A program made the translations under genes and the position numbers. Below are positions 23,862-58,972 of a DNA stretch of 64,000 nt, one piece after another. Where the stretch lies: NCBI RefSeq assembly GCF_023556315.2, contig NZ_CP116221.1, positions 3,424,001 through 3,488,000 on the forward strand, written 5' to 3'. The DNA comes from Psychroserpens ponticola. GTDB taxonomy: Bacteria > Bacteroidota > Bacteroidia > Flavobacteriales > Flavobacteriaceae. Each line of letters starts with the position of its first letter. Positions within the stretch are counted from its first letter, which is position 1. The notes under the pieces are model-generated. The model had not been told where the DNA came from, did not search any database, and was given only the letters and a program-made list of their open reading frames with translations.

Positions 23862-24227
23862 TCATTCTGTTGCCAAAGAAACCTTATACACCCTATTGTT
23901 TTTAAATGCGACAAGCAGTTGCTCTCGATTTGACTCAAAAAAACTTGGTGCTTGTCCTAGTCTATAAAGGAAAATATATTTCTCTTCTGAAAAGCTTGAA
24001 TTTGGTTCTCCTAAAAGAAAAAGGACCTCATCTTTAGTTTTATCTAGTAACATCTGTGATTCAATTATATGATCTACCATTTGATGACGTTTTGAAGGCT
24101 GAGTACTCCAAACATTTTTATCAAAACGTTCTTCAAATAAATAGATTAAGGACGTGCTTAATACAAAAGCTACAAAGAAGAACAAGCCTATCTTATCATT
24201 TCTCTTTAGCTTTTTTAGTTGTACCAT
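23862..24227 (-). CDS. Small membrane-anchored protein with a BamE/SmpA-like region
   Basis: 121 residues. A hydrophobic helix near the N-terminus (about 13-30) is followed by a domain whose LLDKTKDEVLFLLGEPNSSF, a tyrosine-containing strand, and VAFKNNRVYKV pattern resembles the SmpA/OmlA (BamE) fold. No lipobox Cys is present, so it would be anchored by the helix facing the periplasm. Its start overlaps the leuS stop by one base (TAATG), which couples the two. Function is unknown, and the fold assignment is tentative. Confidence 0.7.
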   Translation of the reverse strand: MVQLKKLKRNDKIGLFFFVAFVLSTSLIYLFEERFDKNVWSTQPSKRHQMVDHIIESQMLLDKTKDEVLFLLGEPNSSFSEEKYIFLYRLGQAPSFFESNREQLLVAFKNNRVYKVSLATE

Positions 24228-27200
24228 TATCCTACAATATTGACAATTTTACCTGGAACAACAATTACTTTTTTAGGAGTACGACCATCTAATTGTGCTA
24301 TGGTTTTTTCGTGAGCCATAACCGTTTTTTCAATATCGTCTTTACTCATGTCTAATGGTAATTCTAATGTGAAACGCATTTTGCCATTAAATGATATTGG
24401 GTAATTTTTGCTACTCTCTACCAAATGACTTGCATCAAATACTGGAAAAGCTGCTGTTGAAATCGATTCGTTGTTACCAAGTTTACTCCATAACTCTTCT
24501 GCTATATGTGGCGCGTAAGGAGATAATACTACTAATAAAGGTTCTAAAACTTCTTTACTGTTACACTTTTGAGCAGTTAACTCATTGACTGCAATCATAA
24601 ATGTTGACACAGAAGTATTGAATGAAAAATTCTCAATATCGTCTTCTACTTTTTTAATGGTTTTATGAAGTGTCTTTAAGTTGTCTTTTGTAGGTTCTGT
24701 ATCGTTGACATTTAAACCGTTGTCACCAACATAGAGTTTCCAAAGTTTTTTAAGGAAGCCATGCACTCCTGTAATACCAGCAGTATTCCAAGGTTTTGCT
24801 TGCTCTAATGGACCCAAAAACATTTCGTAAAGACGTAAGCTGTCGGCTCCATATTGTTTGCAAATGTTATCTGGATTGACAACGTTGTATTTGGACTTGG
24901 ACATTTTTTCGACTTCACGACCTACTTTGTAAACGCCATCTTCTAAAATGAATTCGGCATCTTTAAAATCTTCTCCAAATTCTCCATCATTTTTTAATCC
25001 TTCAATATCTAACTCATCTGAAGCATTAACGTATTGAACCTTTACGTGTAATTTATCTATATTAGAAACATGAATACTAATGCTTGAAAGTGAACTATCA
25101 TTTTTTTTAAATAATTCAATTTTATCTAAAACCTCTTTAGTTATATACTTATTAGAATAGTTTTCTTTAAAAAATTCATCTAACTCAATAAGTGATTTTC
25201 CTTTAAAAATATTATCCGAAACATATATTGATGGTAAAATACTCTTAATTTCATCAATATAATTTTCTTGTTTTTCGTTTTCTCCCTTTTCATAATGTCC
25301 TAAAGCACTTACGTTATACTTTACTCTATAAACAAAAGCACTAGTCCCCAAAATCATCCCTTGGTTAATCAACTTTTTAAAAGGTTCTTCAACATTCACA
25401 AACCCTCTGTCTTTCATAAACTTCACCCAAAAACGTGAGTATAATAAATGACCTGTGGCATGTTCGCTTCCACCAATGTATAAATCAACATTTTCCCAAT
25501 AGTTAAGAGCCTCTTCACTTGCAAAAGCTTCGCCTCTATTGGCTGCGTCTTCCATATATCTGAAGAAATACCAAGAACTTCCTGCCCAACCTGGCATGGT
25601 GTTGAGTTCTAGTGGGTAAATTCCGTTGTCTTGAGACGTCTCGACTGCGCTCGACGAGACAGTGTGACAAAGATCATTACTGACTATTGTATTTGTATTC
25701 GTATCCCAAGCCCAAACATCTGCACGACCTAAAGGTGGTTCGCCTGTTTCGGTTGGTAAGTATTTTTCAACTTCTGGTAAGACGATAGGCAAATGCTGTT
25801 TATCAATCATTTGTGGTTTTCCATTGACATAATACACTGGAAACGGTTCGCCCCAATACCGTTGTCTAGAAAATACTGCATCACGCAATCTGTAGTTGGT
25901 TTTACCTTCGCCTTGACCCAATTGTTCTAATTCGTAAATGGCACGTTTGGTCGCTTTTTTGTAGTTCATTCCGTTTAAGAAATCACTATTCGCAATTTTC
26001 ACATTGTCTTTCGCAGCAAAGGCTTCTTCAGAAATATCTACACCTTCAAAAATATTAGGAATATCAATATTAAAATGTTTCGCAAAATCGTAATCGCGTT
26101 GATCACCACAAGGCACAGACATGACTGCTCCTGTTCCGTAGCCAGCTAACACGTAATCACCAATCCAAATTGGAATGGGTTCTTTTGTAAAAGGATGCTC
26201 AGCATAAGCTCCAGTAAAAGCACCTGAAATAGTTTTTACATCAGCCATACGATCGCGTTCACTACGTTTTGCAGTGGCTTCAATATAGGCTTCAACCTCA
26301 GATTTTTGTTCATCTGTCACAATTTGTGACACGAGTTCGTGTTCTGGAGCTAAGGTCATGAATGAGACTCCGTAAATGGTATCTGGTCTTGTGGTAAAGA
26401 CTTCGATTTGATGAGACGTCTCGTCTGCGCTCGACGTGACAGATGGAATAACATTGAATGTTACACTAGCTCCAACCGATTTACCAATCCAGTTACGCTG
26501 ACTTTCCTTCAATGAGTCTGTCCAATCAATCGTATCTAAACCTTGAAGCAAACGTTCAGCATATGCTGAAATCCGCATACTCCATTGGGTCATTTTCTTT
26601 CGCATTACTGGATGTCCTCCACGTTCTGACACACCATTAACAATTTCGTCATTTGCTAAAACCGTTCCTAAAGCTGGACACCAGTTCACTTCAGTTTCAG
26701 CTAAATACGTTAATCTATATTTTAATAAAATCTCTTGTTGTTCTTCAGAAGAAAAAGCATTCCATTCTTCCGCAGTAAATTCATTTATATCATCATCGCA
26801 AACGACATTAACCGTTGTATTTCCTTCCGCAGAAAACTTTGAAATTAACGTATCAATGTGTTCAGCATGATTACGATCGTTGTTATACCAAGATTCAAAT
26901 AATTGAATGAAAATCCATTGCGTCCATTTGTAGTATTCAGGATTAGAAGTCCTAACCTCACGAGACCAATCGAATGAAAATCCGATACGATCTAACTGTT
27001 TTCTATAGCCTTCGATCACATTTCCAGCTTTATCAACGCCGCCTTCTATATTAACTCTTGTAGTATCTGCAGGATGCTGACCCGTTTGAATTGCATATTG
27101 TTCAGCAGGCAAACCAAAACTATCATAACCTTGAGGATGCAAGACGTTAAAACCTTTATGACGTTTGTATCTCGAATAAATATCACTTGCTATATAACCT

Positions 27201-27358
27201 AATGGATGACCAACATGTAAACCTGCTCCACTCGGATAAGGAAACATATCTAACACATAATATTTAGGTTTATCGCTTTTATTTTCAGCTTTAAACGTTT
27301 GATTATCTTCCCAATACTTTTGCCATTTGGCTTCTATCTCGTTAAAATGATAACTCAT
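24227..27358 (-). CDS. leuS: Leucine--tRNA ligase with repeat-derived insertions
   Basis: 1043-residue class I synthetase for tRNA-Leu, long for LeuRS (E. coli has 860). Motifs: FPYPSGAGLHVGHPLG (HIGH region, about 40-55), the CP1 editing-site threonine motif TTRPDTIYG (about 323-331) with GTGAVMSVP, and KMSKS in VEKMSKSKYN (about 820-829). An extra stretch of about 80 residues (about 680-760) lies before the KMSKS loop; I know a shorter segment there in Bacteroidota. Two 11-codon segments encoded by an intergenic-type repeat (about residues 306-318 and 563-575) are unusual. It is divergent from ftsX. Confidence 0.97.
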   Translation of the reverse strand: MSYHFNEIEAKWQKYWEDNQTFKAENKSDKPKYYVLDMFPYPSGAGLHVGHPLGYIASDIYSRYKRHKGFNVLHPQGYDSFGLPAEQYAIQTGQHPADTTRVNIEGGVDKAGNVIEGYRKQLDRIGFSFDWSREVRTSNPEYYKWTQWIFIQLFESWYNNDRNHAEHIDTLISKFSAEGNTTVNVVCDDDINEFTAEEWNAFSSEEQQEILLKYRLTYLAETEVNWCPALGTVLANDEIVNGVSERGGHPVMRKKMTQWSMRISAYAERLLQGLDTIDWTDSLKESQRNWIGKSVGASVTFNVIPSVTSSADETSHQIEVFTTRPDTIYGVSFMTLAPEHELVSQIVTDEQKSEVEAYIEATAKRSERDRMADVKTISGAFTGAYAEHPFTKEPIPIWIGDYVLAGYGTGAVMSVPCGDQRDYDFAKHFNIDIPNIFEGVDISEEAFAAKDNVKIANSDFLNGMNYKKATKRAIYELEQLGQGEGKTNYRLRDAVFSRQRYWGEPFPVYYVNGKPQMIDKQHLPIVLPEVEKYLPTETGEPPLGRADVWAWDTNTNTIVSNDLCHTVSSSAVETSQDNGIYPLELNTMPGWAGSSWYFFRYMEDAANRGEAFASEEALNYWENVDLYIGGSEHATGHLLYSRFWVKFMKDRGFVNVEEPFKKLINQGMILGTSAFVYRVKYNVSALGHYEKGENEKQENYIDEIKSILPSIYVSDNIFKGKSLIELDEFFKENYSNKYITKEVLDKIELFKKNDSSLSSISIHVSNIDKLHVKVQYVNASDELDIEGLKNDGEFGEDFKDAEFILEDGVYKVGREVEKMSKSKYNVVNPDNICKQYGADSLRLYEMFLGPLEQAKPWNTAGITGVHGFLKKLWKLYVGDNGLNVNDTEPTKDNLKTLHKTIKKVEDDIENFSFNTSVSTFMIAVNELTAQKCNSKEVLEPLLVVLSPYAPHIAEELWSKLGNNESISTAAFPVFDASHLVESSKNYPISFNGKMRFTLELPLDMSKDDIEKTVMAHEKTIAQLDGRTPKKVIVVPGKIVNIVG
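25631..25669. repeat. Copy of the GAGCGCAG repeat inside leuS
   Basis: Core CGTCGAGCGCAGTCGAGACG (minus strand) within leuS, translated as VSSSAVETSQ. It matches the copy at 26411-26442 and intergenic copies at 33531-33556 and 57671-57697. Confidence 0.85.
26411..26442. repeat. Second copy of the GAGCGCAG repeat inside leuS
   Basis: Core CGTCGAGCGCAGACGAGACG (minus strand), translated in the same frame as VTSSADETSH, just before the editing-site motif. Only single-base differences from the other leuS copy are seen in the core. Confidence 0.85.
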
Positions 27359-27381
27359 TATTTTTCCTCAAATTTAGACCG

Positions 27382-27389
27382 CAAATTTA
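27382..27389 (-). promoter_or_regulatory. TAnnTTTG promoter element of leuS
   Basis: Minus-strand TAAATTTG; a second identical TAAATTTG lies at 27369-27376, closer to the start codon. Confidence 0.5.
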
Positions 27390-27481
27390 AAGGTATTACA
27401 ACACAATTGAAAGTTTAAGCGTTGTAAACATTATACAAAGCGATTTCTTTTATATTTTTACATCATCAATGCCATAATTAT

Positions 27482-28360
27482 ATGAGTTCATCTTTTGACA
27501 GATATCAAAAACGAAAATTAATTACGTCTTACTTTTCAGTAGTCGTTAGTATAGCACTTGTCCTATTTTTATTAGGATGTTTAGGCTTATTGGTATTGAA
27601 TGCAAAAAAAGTAGCTGATCATTTTAGAGAACAAGTTGTGGTAACAATTTATTTGAATGATTCTGCTAAGCAAGTTGAAGTTGACCAATTAGAGAATACT
27701 TTAGCAATGGCTGAATATTCAAAATCGACAGAATATGTCTCAAAAGAGCAAGCTGCCGAACTTATGAAGGCAGAAACTGGCGAAGACTTTATGGACTTTG
27801 TAGGTTATAATCCGTTGCAAAACTCAATTGATGTGTATCTGAAAGCAGATTATGTTACCAATGAAACACTTGATGGCATTACTGAAGAATTAGCGAATAA
27901 AAAGTTTATTGAAGACATCACTTACGATAATGACCTTGTAGAACTCATGAATAACAACGTTAAGAAAATTACGTTTTGGGTGTTATTACTAAGTGCTATA
28001 TTTACCTTAATTGCGGTTTTATTGATTAATAGTTCGATTCGATTAGCAGTGTATTCTAAACGATTTATTATTAAAACCATGCAAATGGTTGGTGCTACTA
28101 AAACCTTTATTAGACGACCATTTGTTTTTAAAAGTGTACAATTGGGTGTGATTGGAGCCATTGTTGCTTTAATAGGAATGGGAATTGTTTTGTATTATTT
28201 AGATCTTATGTTTCCTGAATTGGAACTCATACAGAATCCTATATTAGTCGGAAGTTTATTTGTTGGTATCTTTTTATTGGGTGTATTAATTACTTGGATA
28301 AGCACGTTTATTGCGACACAACGTTTCTTGAATTTGAAAACAGATCAATTGTACTATTAA
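27482..28360 (+). CDS. ftsX: Cell division protein FtsX
   Basis: 292-residue permease-like protein: membrane helix about 21-41, a periplasmic region of about 120 residues (VTIYLNDSAKQVEV, the FtsX ECD), then three C-terminal helices (about 165-185, 216-238, 255-277) with the FtsX signature QMVGATKTFIRRPF. FtsEX couples ATP hydrolysis to peptidoglycan hydrolase activation at the septum. The ATPase FtsE is not nearby, as often in Bacteroidota. DUF3098 and uppP follow on the same strand. Confidence 0.93.
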   Translation: MSSSFDRYQKRKLITSYFSVVVSIALVLFLLGCLGLLVLNAKKVADHFREQVVVTIYLNDSAKQVEVDQLENTLAMAEYSKSTEYVSKEQAAELMKAETGEDFMDFVGYNPLQNSIDVYLKADYVTNETLDGITEELANKKFIEDITYDNDLVELMNNNVKKITFWVLLLSAIFTLIAVLLINSSIRLAVYSKRFIIKTMQMVGATKTFIRRPFVFKSVQLGVIGAIVALIGMGIVLYYLDLMFPELELIQNPILVGSLFVGIFLLGVLITWISTFIATQRFLNLKTDQLYY

Positions 28361-33126: not shown

Positions 33127-33498
33127 TTAAAAAGGAAGATCGTCGTGATCTTCTTCGTTTATGTTTGTTGCAGGTTCAAATGCTTCAGCAGGAGCTACAG
33201 GTGGCATATTTTCTGCATTTGCTTGAAGGTTTTCAATTCTCCAACCTTGAACAGAGTTAAAATATTTAGTTTCTCCTTGTGGATTAACCCACTCTCTACC
33301 TCTTAGGTTGATATTTACTTTTACGCCTTGACCTACTTGATAGTTATTTAATAAATCTGTTTTGTCTTGAACAAATTCAATTAAGATATGTTGTGGATAC
33401 TGTTCCTCTGTAGTTACTACTAATTCTCTTTTTCTAAACCCATTGCTACCAAAGGTTTGTGTTTCGCTAATCATTTTGACTTTTCCTTGTACTTCCAT
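33127..33498 (-). CDS. DUF3127 domain-containing protein
   Basis: 123 residues. DUF3127 occupies about 1-90, with KVKMISETQTFGSNGFRKRE near the N-terminus and a VNINLRGREWVNPQGETKYF strand; the last 30 residues are acidic and end DDLPF, like the acidic tail of single-stranded DNA-binding proteins. The core looks like an OB fold, so an SSB-like role is possible but unproven. It lies between an intergenic repeat and a terminator, downstream of the flavin reductase gene. Confidence 0.85.
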   Translation of the reverse strand: MEVQGKVKMISETQTFGSNGFRKRELVVTTEEQYPQHILIEFVQDKTDLLNNYQVGQGVKVNINLRGREWVNPQGETKYFNSVQGWRIENLQANAENMPPVAPAEAFEPATNINEEDHDDLPF

Positions 33499-33530
33499 TT
33501 TTTACTAAATTTTTATTTTATATATACTTA

Positions 33531-33556
33531 CTTCTCGACTGCGCTCGAAGTGACAG
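33531..33556. repeat. Intergenic copy of the GAGCGCAG repeat
   Basis: Minus-strand ACTTCGAGCGCAGTCGAGAA, between the flavin reductase stop and the DUF3127 start. Confidence 0.8.
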
Positions 33557-33564
33557 TTCAATTT

Positions 33565-34434
33565 TTATGATAACAACAGTTTCCATGCGCTATTAACATC
33601 ACCATAGCTCAAATAATTTCTTGCTATTTTATGTTTTTGTCTGTGAGACATTTCTCTAATATTTGGATAACGTTCACTAACGTTATTTAAAAACTCTTCT
33701 ACGTCTTCTTTGTGTGGTAACTCCTCAATATTGCCTAACATTCCTAAATCATTTCCAGTTAAAATCATACTATTTTTAACCTCATTTGGCATAGAATCTA
33801 CTCCAATACCTAGAGTTGATAATGGTTTTGGAATTTCAAAAAAGCCTTTTTTTGCTCGGTTGTAATAACTTCCTCCAGCTCTTGCAACTAAATCTAATTT
33901 TTCTTGAACGATCATTTGATTATCATCCATTACTGAATCGTCAATATGAAATTTCACTACTTCACAAATTATCAAATTACCAGCTCCTCCTTCGGTTCCT
34001 AATTCAATAATTTCATTCACTTTGCACTCAAATTGCACAGGTGATTCAGCTACTCTAAATGGTTTAACGACATCTGATTCTAACATTGTTAGTCCTGATT
34101 TATCAAACTCATTAACTCCTTTGGCGTACTCAGTGCTACTCAAAGACATTTGCTGAACAATGTCATAATTAACAACATTGATCACTACTTCTTTTGTGTC
34201 TTTAGCATTTTCTAAAGTGTGCTTAGTTGTATTATTTCTTACACGTCGTGCAGGAGAAAATATTAAAATTGGTGGATTAGCGCTAAACACATTAAAAAAA
34301 CTAAAAGGTGACAAATTTGGATTCCCATCAGAATCAACAGTACTCGCAAAAGCTATTGGTCTAGGCGCTACTGCACTTAACAAATAACCATGTAATTTTG
34401 CTGTTGAAATACTTTTAGGATCAAAAGATATCAT
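33565..34434 (-). CDS. Flavin reductase family protein
   Basis: 289 residues. The split-barrel flavin-binding domain (about 15-195) shows the family pattern AVAPRPIAFASTVDSDGNPN and NLSPFSFFNVFSANPP, which hold FMN and NAD(P)H; the C-terminal 90 residues are a helical extension. Such proteins reduce flavins or act as partner reductases for monooxygenases, or on other substrates. The gene has a TAnnTTTG promoter and probably reads into DUF3127. Confidence 0.88.
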   Translation of the reverse strand: MISFDPKSISTAKLHGYLLSAVAPRPIAFASTVDSDGNPNLSPFSFFNVFSANPPILIFSPARRVRNNTTKHTLENAKDTKEVVINVVNYDIVQQMSLSSTEYAKGVNEFDKSGLTMLESDVVKPFRVAESPVQFECKVNEIIELGTEGGAGNLIICEVVKFHIDDSVMDDNQMIVQEKLDLVARAGGSYYNRAKKGFFEIPKPLSTLGIGVDSMPNEVKNSMILTGNDLGMLGNIEELPHKEDVEEFLNNVSERYPNIREMSHRQKHKIARNYLSYGDVNSAWKLLLS

Positions 34435-56117: not shown

Positions 56118-57659
56118 ATGGCAAACGACGATCAATTTAAAAAAGTAATCTCTCATGCAAAAGAGTATGGTTACGTATTTCAAAGTAGTGAAATCTACGA
56201 TGGATTAAGTGCAGTTTATGATTATGCTCAAAATGGAGCAGAACTCAAAAAAAACATTCGTGATTACTGGTGGAAAGCCATGGTTCAAATGAATGATAAT
56301 ATTGTAGGTATTGATGCTGCAATTTTTATGCATCCAACAACCTGGAAAGCTTCAGGACACGTAGATGCGTTTAGTGATCCACTTATTGATAATAAGGATT
56401 CTAAAAAACGATATCGTGCAGATGTTTTAGTAGAAGACTATTGTGCTAAGATTGAAACCAAAATTGAAAAAGAAGTTAAAAAAGCTGAAAAACGTTTTGG
56501 AGACTCTTTTAATAAAGAAGAATTTGTAAGCACGAACGGAAGAGTTCTCGGTTATCAAGAAAAAATAGATACCATCCTTAAACGACTTGGGCAATCGCTT
56601 GAAAAAGAAGATTTAGCAGATGTAAAAGCTTTAATTGAAGAATTAGAAATTGCAGATCCTTTATCTGGTTCTAGAAACTGGACAGATGTAAAGCAGTTTA
56701 ATTTAATGTTTGGCACAAAATTAGGTGCCAGTGCTGAAACTGCGATGGACTTATACCTACGTCCTGAAACTGCTCAAGGTATTTTTGTTAACTTTTTGAA
56801 TGTTCAAAAAACTGGACGCATGAAAATTCCGTTTGGAATTGCCCAAACTGGTAAAGCCTTCAGAAATGAAATCGTTGCAAGGCAATTTATTTTTAGAATG
56901 CGTGAGTTTGAACAAATGGAAATGCAATTCTTTATCAAACCTGGTACTCAAAAAGAATGGTTTGATCATTGGAAAGCATACAGAATGAAATGGCACTTAT
57001 CTCTAGGAATGGGAAGCGACAACTATCGTTTTCATGACCACGAAAAACTAGCTCATTATGCTGATGCTGCCACAGATATTGAATTCAAATTTCCATTTGG
57101 TTTTAAAGAATTAGAAGGGATTCACTCACGTACTGACTTCGATTTAAAACAGCATGAAGAATTCTCAGGTAAAAAATTACAATATTTCGACCATGAAGAT
57201 AATGCGAGTTACACACCTTATGTTTTAGAAACATCAATTGGACTTGATCGCATGTTTTTAGCTGTATTCTCAAATTCTTTAGAAGATGAAACTCTAGAAG
57301 ATGGAAGTGTAAGAACTGTTTTAAAGCTACCTGCTGTTTTAGCTCCAACTAAAGCTGCTATTTTTCCATTAGTAAAAAAAGATGGTTTACCTGAAGTTGC
57401 GAAACAAATTGTAGAAGATTTAAAATGGGATTTTAATGTGTTTTACGACGAAAAAGATGCTGTTGGAAAACGTTACAGACGTCAAGATGCTAACGGAACT
57501 CCATTTTGCATTACTGTAGATCACGATACTTTAGAAGACAACACAGTTACCATTCGTCATAGAGATACGATGGAACAACAACGTGTTAAGATTGAAGATT
57601 TAAGAGACATCATAAAAAAAGAGGTAGATGTAAAGCATTGGCTTCAGAAAATGGTCTAA
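56118..57659 (+). CDS. glyS: Glycine--tRNA ligase (alpha2 type)
   Basis: 513-residue class II synthetase for tRNA-Gly, dimeric (eukaryote-like) type. Motif 2 is FRNEIVARQFIFRMREFEQ, motif 3 ETSIGLDRMFLAV, and the glycine-site RPETAQGIFVNF (about 216-227) is present; GRVLGYQEKI lies in an inserted domain. The C-terminal anticodon-binding domain carries KRYRRQDANGTPFCITVD. Leaderless transcript likely, with a terminator after the gene. Confidence 0.97.
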   Translation: MANDDQFKKVISHAKEYGYVFQSSEIYDGLSAVYDYAQNGAELKKNIRDYWWKAMVQMNDNIVGIDAAIFMHPTTWKASGHVDAFSDPLIDNKDSKKRYRADVLVEDYCAKIETKIEKEVKKAEKRFGDSFNKEEFVSTNGRVLGYQEKIDTILKRLGQSLEKEDLADVKALIEELEIADPLSGSRNWTDVKQFNLMFGTKLGASAETAMDLYLRPETAQGIFVNFLNVQKTGRMKIPFGIAQTGKAFRNEIVARQFIFRMREFEQMEMQFFIKPGTQKEWFDHWKAYRMKWHLSLGMGSDNYRFHDHEKLAHYADAATDIEFKFPFGFKELEGIHSRTDFDLKQHEEFSGKKLQYFDHEDNASYTPYVLETSIGLDRMFLAVFSNSLEDETLEDGSVRTVLKLPAVLAPTKAAIFPLVKKDGLPEVAKQIVEDLKWDFNVFYDEKDAVGKRYRRQDANGTPFCITVDHDTLEDNTVTIRHRDTMEQQRVKIEDLRDIIKKEVDVKHWLQKMV

Positions 57660-57670
57660 CAAATAGAGAA

Positions 57671-57697
57671 TGTCACCTTGAGCGCAGTCGAAAGGTC
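57671..57697. repeat. Intergenic copy of the GAGCGCAG repeat
   Basis: Plus-strand CACCTTGAGCGCAGTCGAAA, 11 bp after the glyS stop, related to two copies inside leuS and one at 33531-33556. Confidence 0.8.
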
Positions 57698-57707
57698 TTA
57701 TTAAAAC

Positions 57708-57743: not shown

Positions 57744-57781
57744 TTAAAAATAGGCCTTCAGCTGAACTATTCCTGTGTCTA
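57743..57781. repeat. Direct repeat copy A: 3'-end remnant of the outer-membrane protein gene
   Basis: 57743-57767 is identical to 59036-59060 over 25 bp, with weaker identity for about ten more bases. Read on the minus strand it encodes TGIVQLKAYF plus stop, matching the C-terminus TGTVQLKAYF of the gene at 59037-62447. It abuts the stop codon of the LRR gene between the two copies. Confidence 0.8.
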
Positions 57782-58972
57782 TAATTTAAGAAACTTCAAA
57801 GTTTTAGTTCTCGAATCAACAGTCGTTAATGAAATGAAATAAACTCCTGGTGTCAAATTTTCGACATTGACATTCACTTCTCTATTATTGATTTCTTTTT
57901 GTATCACTTTTTCACCTGTAACCGCAAAAACATCAATGTTTTTAATATTGTGCTTACTTTCTAAGATTAAATTCTCTTTAACTGGATTAAATTTCAAGAC
58001 AATGTTTTCGATTAAAAATGAGTCGATAGATAATACTGAACAATCTTCTACAAACTGAGTTTGAGCAGGAATCAAAGTAAAATTATCGTTTGCAAACTCG
58101 ATATCATCAACACAAATTAAATCTAAATTTAGGCTACCAAAAAATGCATCGATACCTGAGACACTAGACAAACCTCCAATTGTAAAATCTACTGAACAGT
58201 TTTGGTTTGGTGCTAAAGCCTGATTGTTTCCATTTTGAATATTAATAGTATTTAATACAGGACAATTTCTCGATTTTAAGGAACATAATTGATTATTGTT
58301 AGAAAAATCTACATCTGAAAAATTATTAAAGCCAATATCAACTATTTTTAAATTTAGGAATAATGAAAAATCAAAGTTATCTATCCCTATATTTCTCATT
58401 TCTATTGATTCTAACAAGATATTATTAGAAAGGTCCAAATTATTATTAATACTAGTAAGGTTTATTATTGATAAAGCCAATAAATTTAGATTATTAGTAA
58501 CATCGATTGTGTTAATATTTGTACCGCTAATATCCAGAAACTCTAAATTACTATGCTGCGTAACATCAATATCACTAATAGAAGTATAACCTAAGCTAAT
58601 AAAACTCAATTCTAAATTAGCAGAAATATCAATTTCGCTCAAATCAGTAAATTGAAGATTAATTTGCTCCAATTGTGTATTACTGGATAAATCTACGCTT
58701 GCAATTGGATTATTAAAACAAACTAATCGTTCCAAATTAATAAATGCTTCAATTCCAACTATACTACTAATGTTTTGATTAAAAGCGCTTATAGCTGTAG
58801 TCGTTAATGCTTCAGAAACCTGAATTTCACCATCGCTATTGGAATCTATTACTGGATTATGGTTTAATAATGCTGTTTTAAAATTTGGATCTGGAATGCT
58901 CACAATTTGACCAATTGAAATTTGAATATTAAGAAGAATCAAGAAGAAAAATAAAATAGAAGCTCTAGACAT
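57779..58972 (-). CDS. Leucine-rich repeat protein with T9SS type A-like C-terminus
   Basis: 397 residues. Signal peptide ends IQISIGQ (about 22), then IPDPNFKTALLNHNPVIDSN (the same PD.NF..AL opening as the other LRR proteins), an EF-hand-like DSNSDGEIQ, LRRs of about 21 residues (about 75-260), a closing block ending EDC, and a C-terminal T9SS-type domain (ENIVLKFNPVKENLIL, LTPGVYFISL). The KxNPV motif is a diverged form of YPNP. The gene is framed by a direct repeat of the flanking OMP gene's end. Confidence 0.85.
   Translation of the reverse strand: MSRASILFFFLILLNIQISIGQIVSIPDPNFKTALLNHNPVIDSNSDGEIQVSEALTTTAISAFNQNISSIVGIEAFINLERLVCFNNPIASVDLSSNTQLEQINLQFTDLSEIDISANLELSFISLGYTSISDIDVTQHSNLEFLDISGTNINTIDVTNNLNLLALSIINLTSINNNLDLSNNILLESIEMRNIGIDNFDFSLFLNLKIVDIGFNNFSDVDFSNNNQLCSLKSRNCPVLNTINIQNGNNQALAPNQNCSVDFTIGGLSSVSGIDAFFGSLNLDLICVDDIEFANDNFTLIPAQTQFVEDCSVLSIDSFLIENIVLKFNPVKENLILESKHNIKNIDVFAVTGEKVIQKEINNREVNVNVENLTPGVYFISLTTVDSRTKTLKFLKL

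What the first reader, a model, noticed from the sequence alone, without database searches (positions are those of the whole stretch)
25631..26442. Intergenic repeat captured twice inside leuS in the same frame
leuS has two segments (about residues 306-318 and 563-575) with the minus-strand core CGTCGAGCGCAG(A/T)CGAGACG. The same core occurs in intergenic repeats at 33531 and 57671. Both leuS copies are read in the same frame, giving VTSSADETS and VSSSAVETS, without a stop. The first lies at the base of the editing domain just before the TTRPDT motif. The repeat therefore appears to have inserted into an essential gene and been kept as coding sequence, a way in which such repeats add protein loops.
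Basis: partly seen in the sequence, partly recalled or inferred. Interest (0 to 1): 0.7.

Follow-up and report, generated by a model that had tools for sequence, protein, structure and literature searches.

The report
Repeats captured inside leucyl-tRNA synthetase gene
Short hairpin-type junk DNA repeats that mostly sit between genes have been built, in frame, into two loops of an essential protein-making enzyme, and in related bacteria the same two spots carry different repeats or none, so selfish DNA looks like a recurrent source of new protein segments here.

Summary
Confirmed, and broader than reported. The core belongs to a REP-like hairpin family, TGTC[A/T]-nn-TCGAGCGCAGTCGAGA-n'n', with 88 copies in the genome (reversed control 0). 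Two stem pairs covary (82/88 and 79/88 Watson-Crick; 26.5 and 37.6 expected). Nineteen copies lie in frame inside 13 conserved genes, leuS twice.

Among 215 distinct LeuRS sequences, mostly Flavobacteriaceae, the same two spots are recurrent insertion sites: site 1 is filled in 78 of 185 scorable sequences, site 2 in 26 of 206, by several repeat families. Presence shows no detectable phylogenetic signal. For two families counted in 12 genomes, the LeuRS insert follows the genome's own repeat stock. Ends are not clean: in one near-identical pair a tract of under 100 nt is exchanged.

Close prior art: intragenic CGTC/TGTC-tagged REPs and Rickettsia palindromic elements. New here, as far as nine literature searches show, are the family-wide hot spot, the tract exchange, and a DUF559 domain at site 1 in two genomes. 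Loop placement is inferred from alignment; no structure could be modelled. Beside it, a hypervariable segment of about 120 residues in the same enzyme differs in 8 of 9 closest pairs.

The parts
24227..27358 (-). leuS, leucyl-tRNA synthetase, 1043 aa
   Evidence: ORF; Pfam tRNA-synt_1_2 editing domain at residues 288-475, E 1e-54, and tRNA-synt_1; matches solved LeuRS chains such as 1h3n, E 9e-161
26412..26441 (-). captured REP at site 1 (TGTCACGTCGAGCGCAGACGAGACGTCTCA), LeuRS residues about 306-316, just before VFTTRPDT of the editing domain
   Evidence: site empty in 107 of 185 scorable LeuRS, filled in 78
25632..25661 (-). captured REP at site 2 (TGTCTCGTCGAGCGCAGTCGAGACGTCTCA), LeuRS residues about 566-576, before PLELNTMPGW
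   Evidence: site empty in 180 of 206 scorable LeuRS, filled in 26
33526..33555 (-). intergenic copy of the same repeat family (TGTCACTTCGAGCGCAGTCGAGAAGT...)
   Evidence: between ORFs 33127-33498 and 33565-34434
57671..57700 (+). intergenic, more divergent copy (TGTCACCTTGAGCGCAGTCGAAAGGT...)
   Evidence: between ORFs 56118-57659 and 57779-58972
25055..25324 (-). core of a hypervariable LeuRS segment (residues about 679-768), between GMILGTSAF and the KMSKS motif; not part of the repeat, but another locally exchanged segment of the same enzyme
   Evidence: residues 676-800 are 14-36% identical in 8 of 9 closest LeuRS pairs whose flanks are 87-100% identical; DNA-level break there in 5 of 5 such pairs tested

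Best explanation
The segments are copies of a small palindromic repeat (a REP in the style of the CGTC/TGTC-tagged kind) that is abundant in this genome. Shown: such repeats now form coding sequence at two spots of LeuRS and in 12 other conserved genes of this genome, in frame and without stops; relatives mostly lack them or carry other sequence at the same spots. Inferred: most insertions into genes are lost to selection, and those seen survive because the unit can be read in at least five ways without a stop, commonly as a short hydrophilic Ser/Glu-rich peptide, in loops that tolerate extra residues. Also inferred: the repeat enters by copying or local conversion from the genome's own repeat population, often replacing a few codons, and insert-bearing tracts can then pass between species by very short homologous replacements. 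The enzyme is assumed to stay functional because the ORF and its conserved motifs are intact; this was not tested.
For: 88 copies against 0 for the reversed control. Stem pair 1 Watson-Crick in 82/88 (expected 26.5), pair 2 in 79/88 (expected 37.6); TGTC at the 5' end in 69/88. 19 copies in frame in 13 genes; in 9 of the 12 genes other than leuS at least one of two relatives lacks 6 or more residues at the spot. Site 1 filled in 78/185, site 2 in 26/206 LeuRS, by several repeat families. Presence is about as scattered as shuffled labels: 57 changes against a mean of 59.6 (55 of 200 shuffles as low), and 23 against 24.9 (19 of 200). Where both sites carry a repeat that I could classify, the family agrees in 9 of 13, 2.2 expected, 0 of 5000 shuffles as high. 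In 12 genomes counted for two families, abundance goes with the insert: TCGAG type 88 copies in G000 and 43 in G019, whose LeuRS carry it; SEES type 41 in G008 (both LeuRS sites), 14 in G016 and 14 in G014; genomes empty at both sites (G003, G005, G006) hold 1, 6, 0 and 0, 2, 0 (counts include the LeuRS copies). L074 and L262 differ sharply only in the site-2 tract of the stretch compared.
Against: Ends are not clean, and in MvaD and BioF the relatives have nearly the same length, so some cases may be replacement or slow change; the PdhC copies sit in variable linkers. Of 78 site-1 inserts 23, and of 26 site-2 inserts 7, fit none of my repeat labels, which are regular expressions on translations. 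A third possible stem pair (A after TGTC with T) does not covary, 52 of 88 against 54.7 expected. Single-strand folding energies do not exceed shuffles. No transposase cognate to this repeat was found in the genus. At site 2 the flank G[IV][YF] goes with the insert in 24/26 against 2/180 without, which suggests a shared allele more than wholly independent events. One genome per genus is the main sampling, which itself weakens any phylogenetic signal.
Confidence: 0.85

Rival explanations
1. Mainly for site 2: one insert-bearing LeuRS tract arose once and has spread between species by short homologous replacements; the repeat inside it was later converted to the family abundant in each new host genome.
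For: 24 of 26 insert-bearing site-2 tracts have G[IV][YF] before PLEL against 2 of 180 empty ones (3 if E is allowed for G); L074 and L262 are 90-100% identical in the 60-nt windows compared except two windows (78% and 53%) over the site-2 tract; the L074 tract is nearest to that of another insert-bearing LeuRS, L039.
Against: Families at the site differ and, for the two families counted in 12 genomes, match the genome's own stock, so the repeat itself looks local. An empty LeuRS (L305) is among the nearest tracts. Convergence on an N-G turn could give the same flank.
Confidence: 0.35
2. A single ancient insertion inherited vertically, with losses.
For: Inserts of the same style occur in many genera at the same spots.
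Against: No detectable phylogenetic signal; different families; the empty form is widespread and similar across the family.
Confidence: 0.04
3. Chance or convergent low-complexity loops, not repeats at all.
For: Some inserts are low-complexity, for example TTNNQQPTT in L099; fold energies are not unusual.
Against: Exact core match with 0 expected; 88 genomic copies with stem covariation.
Confidence: 0.02
4. The inserts are favoured, not only tolerated: LeuRS loops diversify to escape something that binds this enzyme (a toxin, an antibiotic-like compound or a phage protein), and repeats are handy raw material.
For: Two repeat-prone sites and a third segment of about 120 residues are variable and locally exchanged while the rest of the gene stays similar, 87-100% in the flanks of the closest pairs.
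Against: No attacker is known to me here and none was searched for; neutral tolerance plus recombination may suffice; 12 other genes carry repeats too.
Confidence: 0.2

Closest known systems
CGTC-tagged REP repeats (Di Nocera et al. 2013, PMC3733652; passages and sections 6 and 15 read)
   Same: Short palindromes with one conserved end (CGTC, often TGTC), reported in Bacteroidetes among five phyla, no associated transposase, some copies inside genes including tRNA synthetases, and at about one shared recB site in two Xanthomonas species.
   Different: Imperfect stem, first A-T pair in only 52 of 88, no CCA tail seen, pairs with TGTC ends outward more common than the reverse. That paper's main text has no hit for 'flavobacter' and names tRNA synthetases only once, in three Proteobacteria (supplements not read). 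Here one gene is hit at the same two sites in many genera by different families.
Rickettsia palindromic elements, RPE (Ogata, Claverie and colleagues; recalled, and described in passages of PMC3733652)
   Same: Palindromic repeats present between genes and in frame inside genes for conserved proteins.
   Different: Other phylum; sequences not compared here; recurrent filling of the same sites of one essential enzyme in many lineages.
GTAG REPs with RAYT transposases (recalled; papers seen in the listing only)
   Same: Dispersed imperfect hairpins, often in inverted pairs.
   Different: TGTC end, not GTAG; the genome's only Y1_Tnp match (a domain fused to hemF) has no copy of this repeat within the roughly 1.5 kb fetched on each side.
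Coxiella QMITE elements inside ORFs (PMC5896051, passages read)
   Same: Repeats that add coding sequence in frame.
   Different: MITEs, in known genes mostly overlapping the 3' end, in mid-ORF positions in hypothetical proteins.

Membership tests
CGTC-tagged REP superfamily | CGTC or TGTC at one end | tested here: met
   TGTC in 69 of 88 copies
CGTC-tagged REP superfamily | Base-paired stem | tested here: met
   Two pairs covary, 82/88 and 79/88 Watson-Crick against 26.5 and 37.6 expected; the next outer position does not, 52/88 against 54.7
CGTC-tagged REP superfamily | 8-9 bp stem, 4-5 nt loop, complementary A/T in first and second position, tail CCA (as in section 6) | tested here: not met
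   First position A-T in 52/88, second variable; none of the 12 commonest downstream 5-mers shows CCA; stem imperfect by inspection, stem and loop length not measured over all copies
CGTC-tagged REP superfamily | Head-to-head dimers predominate | tested here: inconclusive
   19 pairs within 80 nt: 13 of +- order (TGTC ends outward), 6 of -+ order; the paper's head convention was not checked
CGTC-tagged REP superfamily | No associated transposase gene | tested here: met
   One Y1_Tnp match in the genome; none of the ten Y1_Tnp loci of the genus has this core at up to 3 substitutions; other transposase types not examined
Rickettsia palindromic elements | In-frame presence in ORFs of conserved proteins as well as between genes | tested here: met
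   19 of 88 copies in 13 genes
Rickettsia palindromic elements | RPE sequence families of Rickettsia | not tested
   No RPE sequences were compared; similarity is in behaviour only
RAYT-associated GTAG REP | GTAG end and a flanking RAYT gene | tested here: not met
   TGTC end; no copy of the core beside the Y1_Tnp genes found

The most novel reading that the evidence does not exclude
LeuRS of Flavobacteriaceae is a diversifying enzyme: two repeat-fed loops and a hypervariable segment of about 120 residues before KMSKS are swapped between near-identical genes like antigen cassettes, with selfish repeats (and twice a DUF559 domain) as raw material, in an arms race with an agent that targets LeuRS.
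Probability: 0.2. Interest if true: 0.88.

Novelty: new variant of a known kind. Interest (0 to 1): 0.62.

Why it matters
In-frame palindromic repeats are known mainly from Rickettsia and scattered genomes. Here one essential, well-studied enzyme offers many filled and empty natural versions at the same two positions, some from named isolates, with different repeats in different lineages. That makes the question whether selfish repeats are a real source of protein loops or only tolerated scars directly testable with purified enzymes and strain collections. It also warns that alignments, models and drug-target work on LeuRS of this family must expect exchanged segments.

Tried and rejected
Fold energy as proof of a hairpin: inserts are not clearly more stable than shuffles (p<=0.05 in 12 of 76 site-1 and 6 of 25 site-2 inserts, against 8 of 107 and 10 of 180 empty ones; four 30-mers with z between -0.22 and 0.25), so the claim rests on covariation. 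Cognate RAYT: the single Y1_Tnp match in the genome is fused to hemF and flanked by another repeat; none of the ten loci from the genus carries the TCGAG core. Silent cassettes for the hypervariable segment elsewhere in the genome: none convincing (one match of E 0.0075 with a stop). Rfam over 24000-27500: no match up to E 1. Simple clean insertion: rejected for site 2. My reading as 9 of 9 pairs with a replaced hypervariable segment was wrong (so written in my notebook): L262 was a truncated fetch, and the full-length L350 shares that segment with L074 but for one residue, so it is 8 of 9. Rows dropped: 30 of 215 LeuRS not parsed by my site-1 anchors, 5 without the site-2 anchor and 4 not comparable at site 2. 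One further repeat copy (2377983), at the C-terminal end of a ribD-like ORF, and copies upstream of the first ATG were left out of the 19. The DNA table failed for 3 of 8 pairs; one search covers two of these (L080/L147, L122/L140), L132/L243 was not redone. In one search the reversed control was 0 in 11 of 12 genomes and 1 in G005. Literature: nine searches, judged by listed titles and abstract starts, showed no report of repeats in Flavobacteriaceae LeuRS; papers outside the held library were not seen, and no supplements were read.

Full report
Observation. The copies at 33531 and 57671 are intergenic members of the same family with changed stems, not the same 20-mer.

What the repeat is. 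The window lies at 3424001-3488000 of a genome held as one 4.03 Mb contig. The 16-nt core TCGAGCGCAGTCGAGA occurs 88 times at up to 2 mismatches, 0 times when read backwards. All 88 sites were read. TGTC precedes the stem in 69 of 88. The two bases on each side of the core covary: 82/88 and 79/88 Watson-Crick pairs against 26.5 and 37.6 expected from the column make-up; the next outer position does not (52 against 54.7). Common stems are GG..CC (29) and CC..GG (24). Nineteen pairs within 80 nt are in inverted order, 13 as +- and 6 as -+. This is a REP-like hairpin family. Computed fold energies alone would not have shown it.

Other genes. Nineteen of the 88 copies lie, with coding sequence on both sides, inside 13 long ORFs: a 2-hydroxyacid dehydrogenase, metH, two 2-oxoacid dehydrogenase genes (E2 and fused E1), valS, purL (an inverted pair), pdhC (two), a mannosyltransferase-like membrane protein (three), mvaD, hemW, bioF, a ketoacyl synthase (two) and leuS (two). 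Eight names follow the best NCBIfam matches, of which only HemW passes its curated cut-off; leuS follows Pfam and solved chains; valS, purL, pdhC and the ketoacyl synthase are my reading of the sequences. A copy at the very end of a ribD-like ORF and copies before the first ATG were not counted. Five readings of the repeat are used: SSAVE type 9, RAQSR type 4, HLERS type 2, and antisense LSTAL type 2 and LDCAR type 2. Against two relatives, G005 and G003, 9 of the 12 genes other than leuS lack 6 or more residues at the spot in at least one relative; MvaD and BioF differ little in length, and the PdhC linkers vary both ways. In MetH, G005 has another repeat-like peptide (GHAELDSASH) at the same place.

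LeuRS in the family. I extracted 239 LeuRS ORFs, 215 distinct: 30 loci, 80 named genomes, and 29 loci plus 100 fetched stretches out of the 242 genomes with a match. Four named loci (three of them Psychroserpens by title) have the same site segments as genus members of the window's genome, so the window is probably from that genus in the wide sense (inference). The empty forms are of the types NVNDHDEVIEV-FTTRPDT and SNDKINNTTVFPLEL. Site 1 is longer than 13 residues in 78 of 185 scorable proteins; site 2 carries an insert in 26 of 206. Many inserts are translations of repeats: TCGAG type, CTGAG type (LSAVEGS), SEAKQS type, SERSEES type, HSELVSES type, an EALEVT type and MLKxVQHD; these labels are mine, and 23 of 78 and 7 of 26 inserts got none. 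In two genomes of the genus site 1 holds a DUF559 domain (Pfam E 4e-33 and 1e-32) with no stop.

How it got there. On a LeuRS tree (FastTree) built without the variable columns, insert presence needs 57 changes at site 1 (mean of 200 label shuffles 59.6, 55 as low) and 23 at site 2 (24.9, 19 as low), so no phylogenetic signal is detected; sampling mostly one genome per genus weakens it in any case. Within one protein the two sites agree in family in 9 of 13 classifiable cases against 2.2 expected. Two families were counted in 12 genomes of the genus: 41 SEES-type copies in G008, which has it at both sites; 88 and 43 TCGAG copies in G000 and G019, which have it; few or none in G003, G005 and G006, which are empty at both sites. 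So the repeats seem drawn from the local population, again and again. Yet the surroundings change too. L074 (Lacinutrix himadriensis) and L262 (unnamed) share 90-100% of bases in 60-nt windows along the stretch compared but 78% and 53% in the two windows over the site-2 tract, with return to identity within a few codons. The residues G[IV][YF] before PLEL go with the insert in 24 of 26 against 2 of 180. I read this as local capture plus exchange of very short tracts between species; convergent selection on the flank is not excluded.

Where in the protein. In the alignment to chain 1h3n (Thermus, organism recalled) site 1 falls between LFPVE and GKEVRIPVFTTRPDT, inside the Pfam editing-domain match. 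Chain 7nua (Neisseria, recalled) is about as long there as the window's protein, so this spot varies in length in other bacteria too. Site 2 aligns to a region that is shorter in both chains shown, before DTMDTF. I infer exposed loops; no model could be made.

Prior knowledge. Intragenic palindromic repeats are known. Di Nocera et al. (PMC3733652; passages and sections 6 and 15 read) report CGTC/TGTC-tagged repeats in five phyla including Bacteroidetes, without transposase, some inside genes, among them tRNA synthetases, and about one shared recB site in two Xanthomonas species. RPEs of Rickettsia are the classic case (described in that paper; the primary paper tried was not held). The present repeat meets the tag, paired-stem and no-transposase features but not the stem and tail details, so it works like these and may be a divergent branch of the CGTC group; I do not file it as one of the four named families. 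Nine searches, judged by their listings, turned up no report of repeats in LeuRS of Flavobacteriaceae.

Beside it. Residues about 676-800 of LeuRS are hypervariable: in 8 of 9 closest pairs they are 14-36% identical while the protein flanks are 87-100% identical; the ninth pair, L074 with L262/L350, shares this segment and differs at site 2 instead. In 5 of 5 of these 8 pairs examined at DNA level the stretches that touch leuS align at 87-96% identity and break inside leuS only at this segment; other breaks lie outside leuS. Together with sites 1 and 2 this makes LeuRS a mosaic enzyme in this family, and leads to the bold reading of an arms race, which I hold at 0.2.

Verdict. A real case of selfish repeat capture by an essential gene, recurrent at two sites across a bacterial family: a new variant of a known kind.

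Noticed in passing
24923-25333 (minus), LeuRS residues about 676-812: Hypervariable segment before KMSKS: 14-36% identity in 8 of 9 closest LeuRS pairs with flanks 87-100% identical; some species have only a short form. Looks like an exchanged cassette.
   Followed up: partly
L141:1477-2967 (own genome 3665707 region): A Y1_Tnp (RAYT-like) transposase domain fused in frame to the N-terminus of coproporphyrinogen oxidase HemF through a translated repeat (SYLQGFENLAG); inverted repeats at L141:1431-1457 and 1996-2022 (96% complementary) flank the transposase part.
   Followed up: partly
L049/L351 and L052/L352 (G002, G021), LeuRS site 1: A DUF559 domain lies in frame inside LeuRS at the same site as the repeats, bordered by repeat-like peptides such as LPLGKDLGW.
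   Followed up: partly
L328 (G005) metH: Another repeat-type peptide, GHAELDSASH, sits at the place where the window's genome has its own repeat in metH: perhaps a second recurrent site.
   Followed up: no
G008:C41:172338-173513 and C1:37719-38660: SEES-type repeats in regular arrays about 126-132 bp apart, like a tandem array of repeat-bearing units.
   Followed up: no
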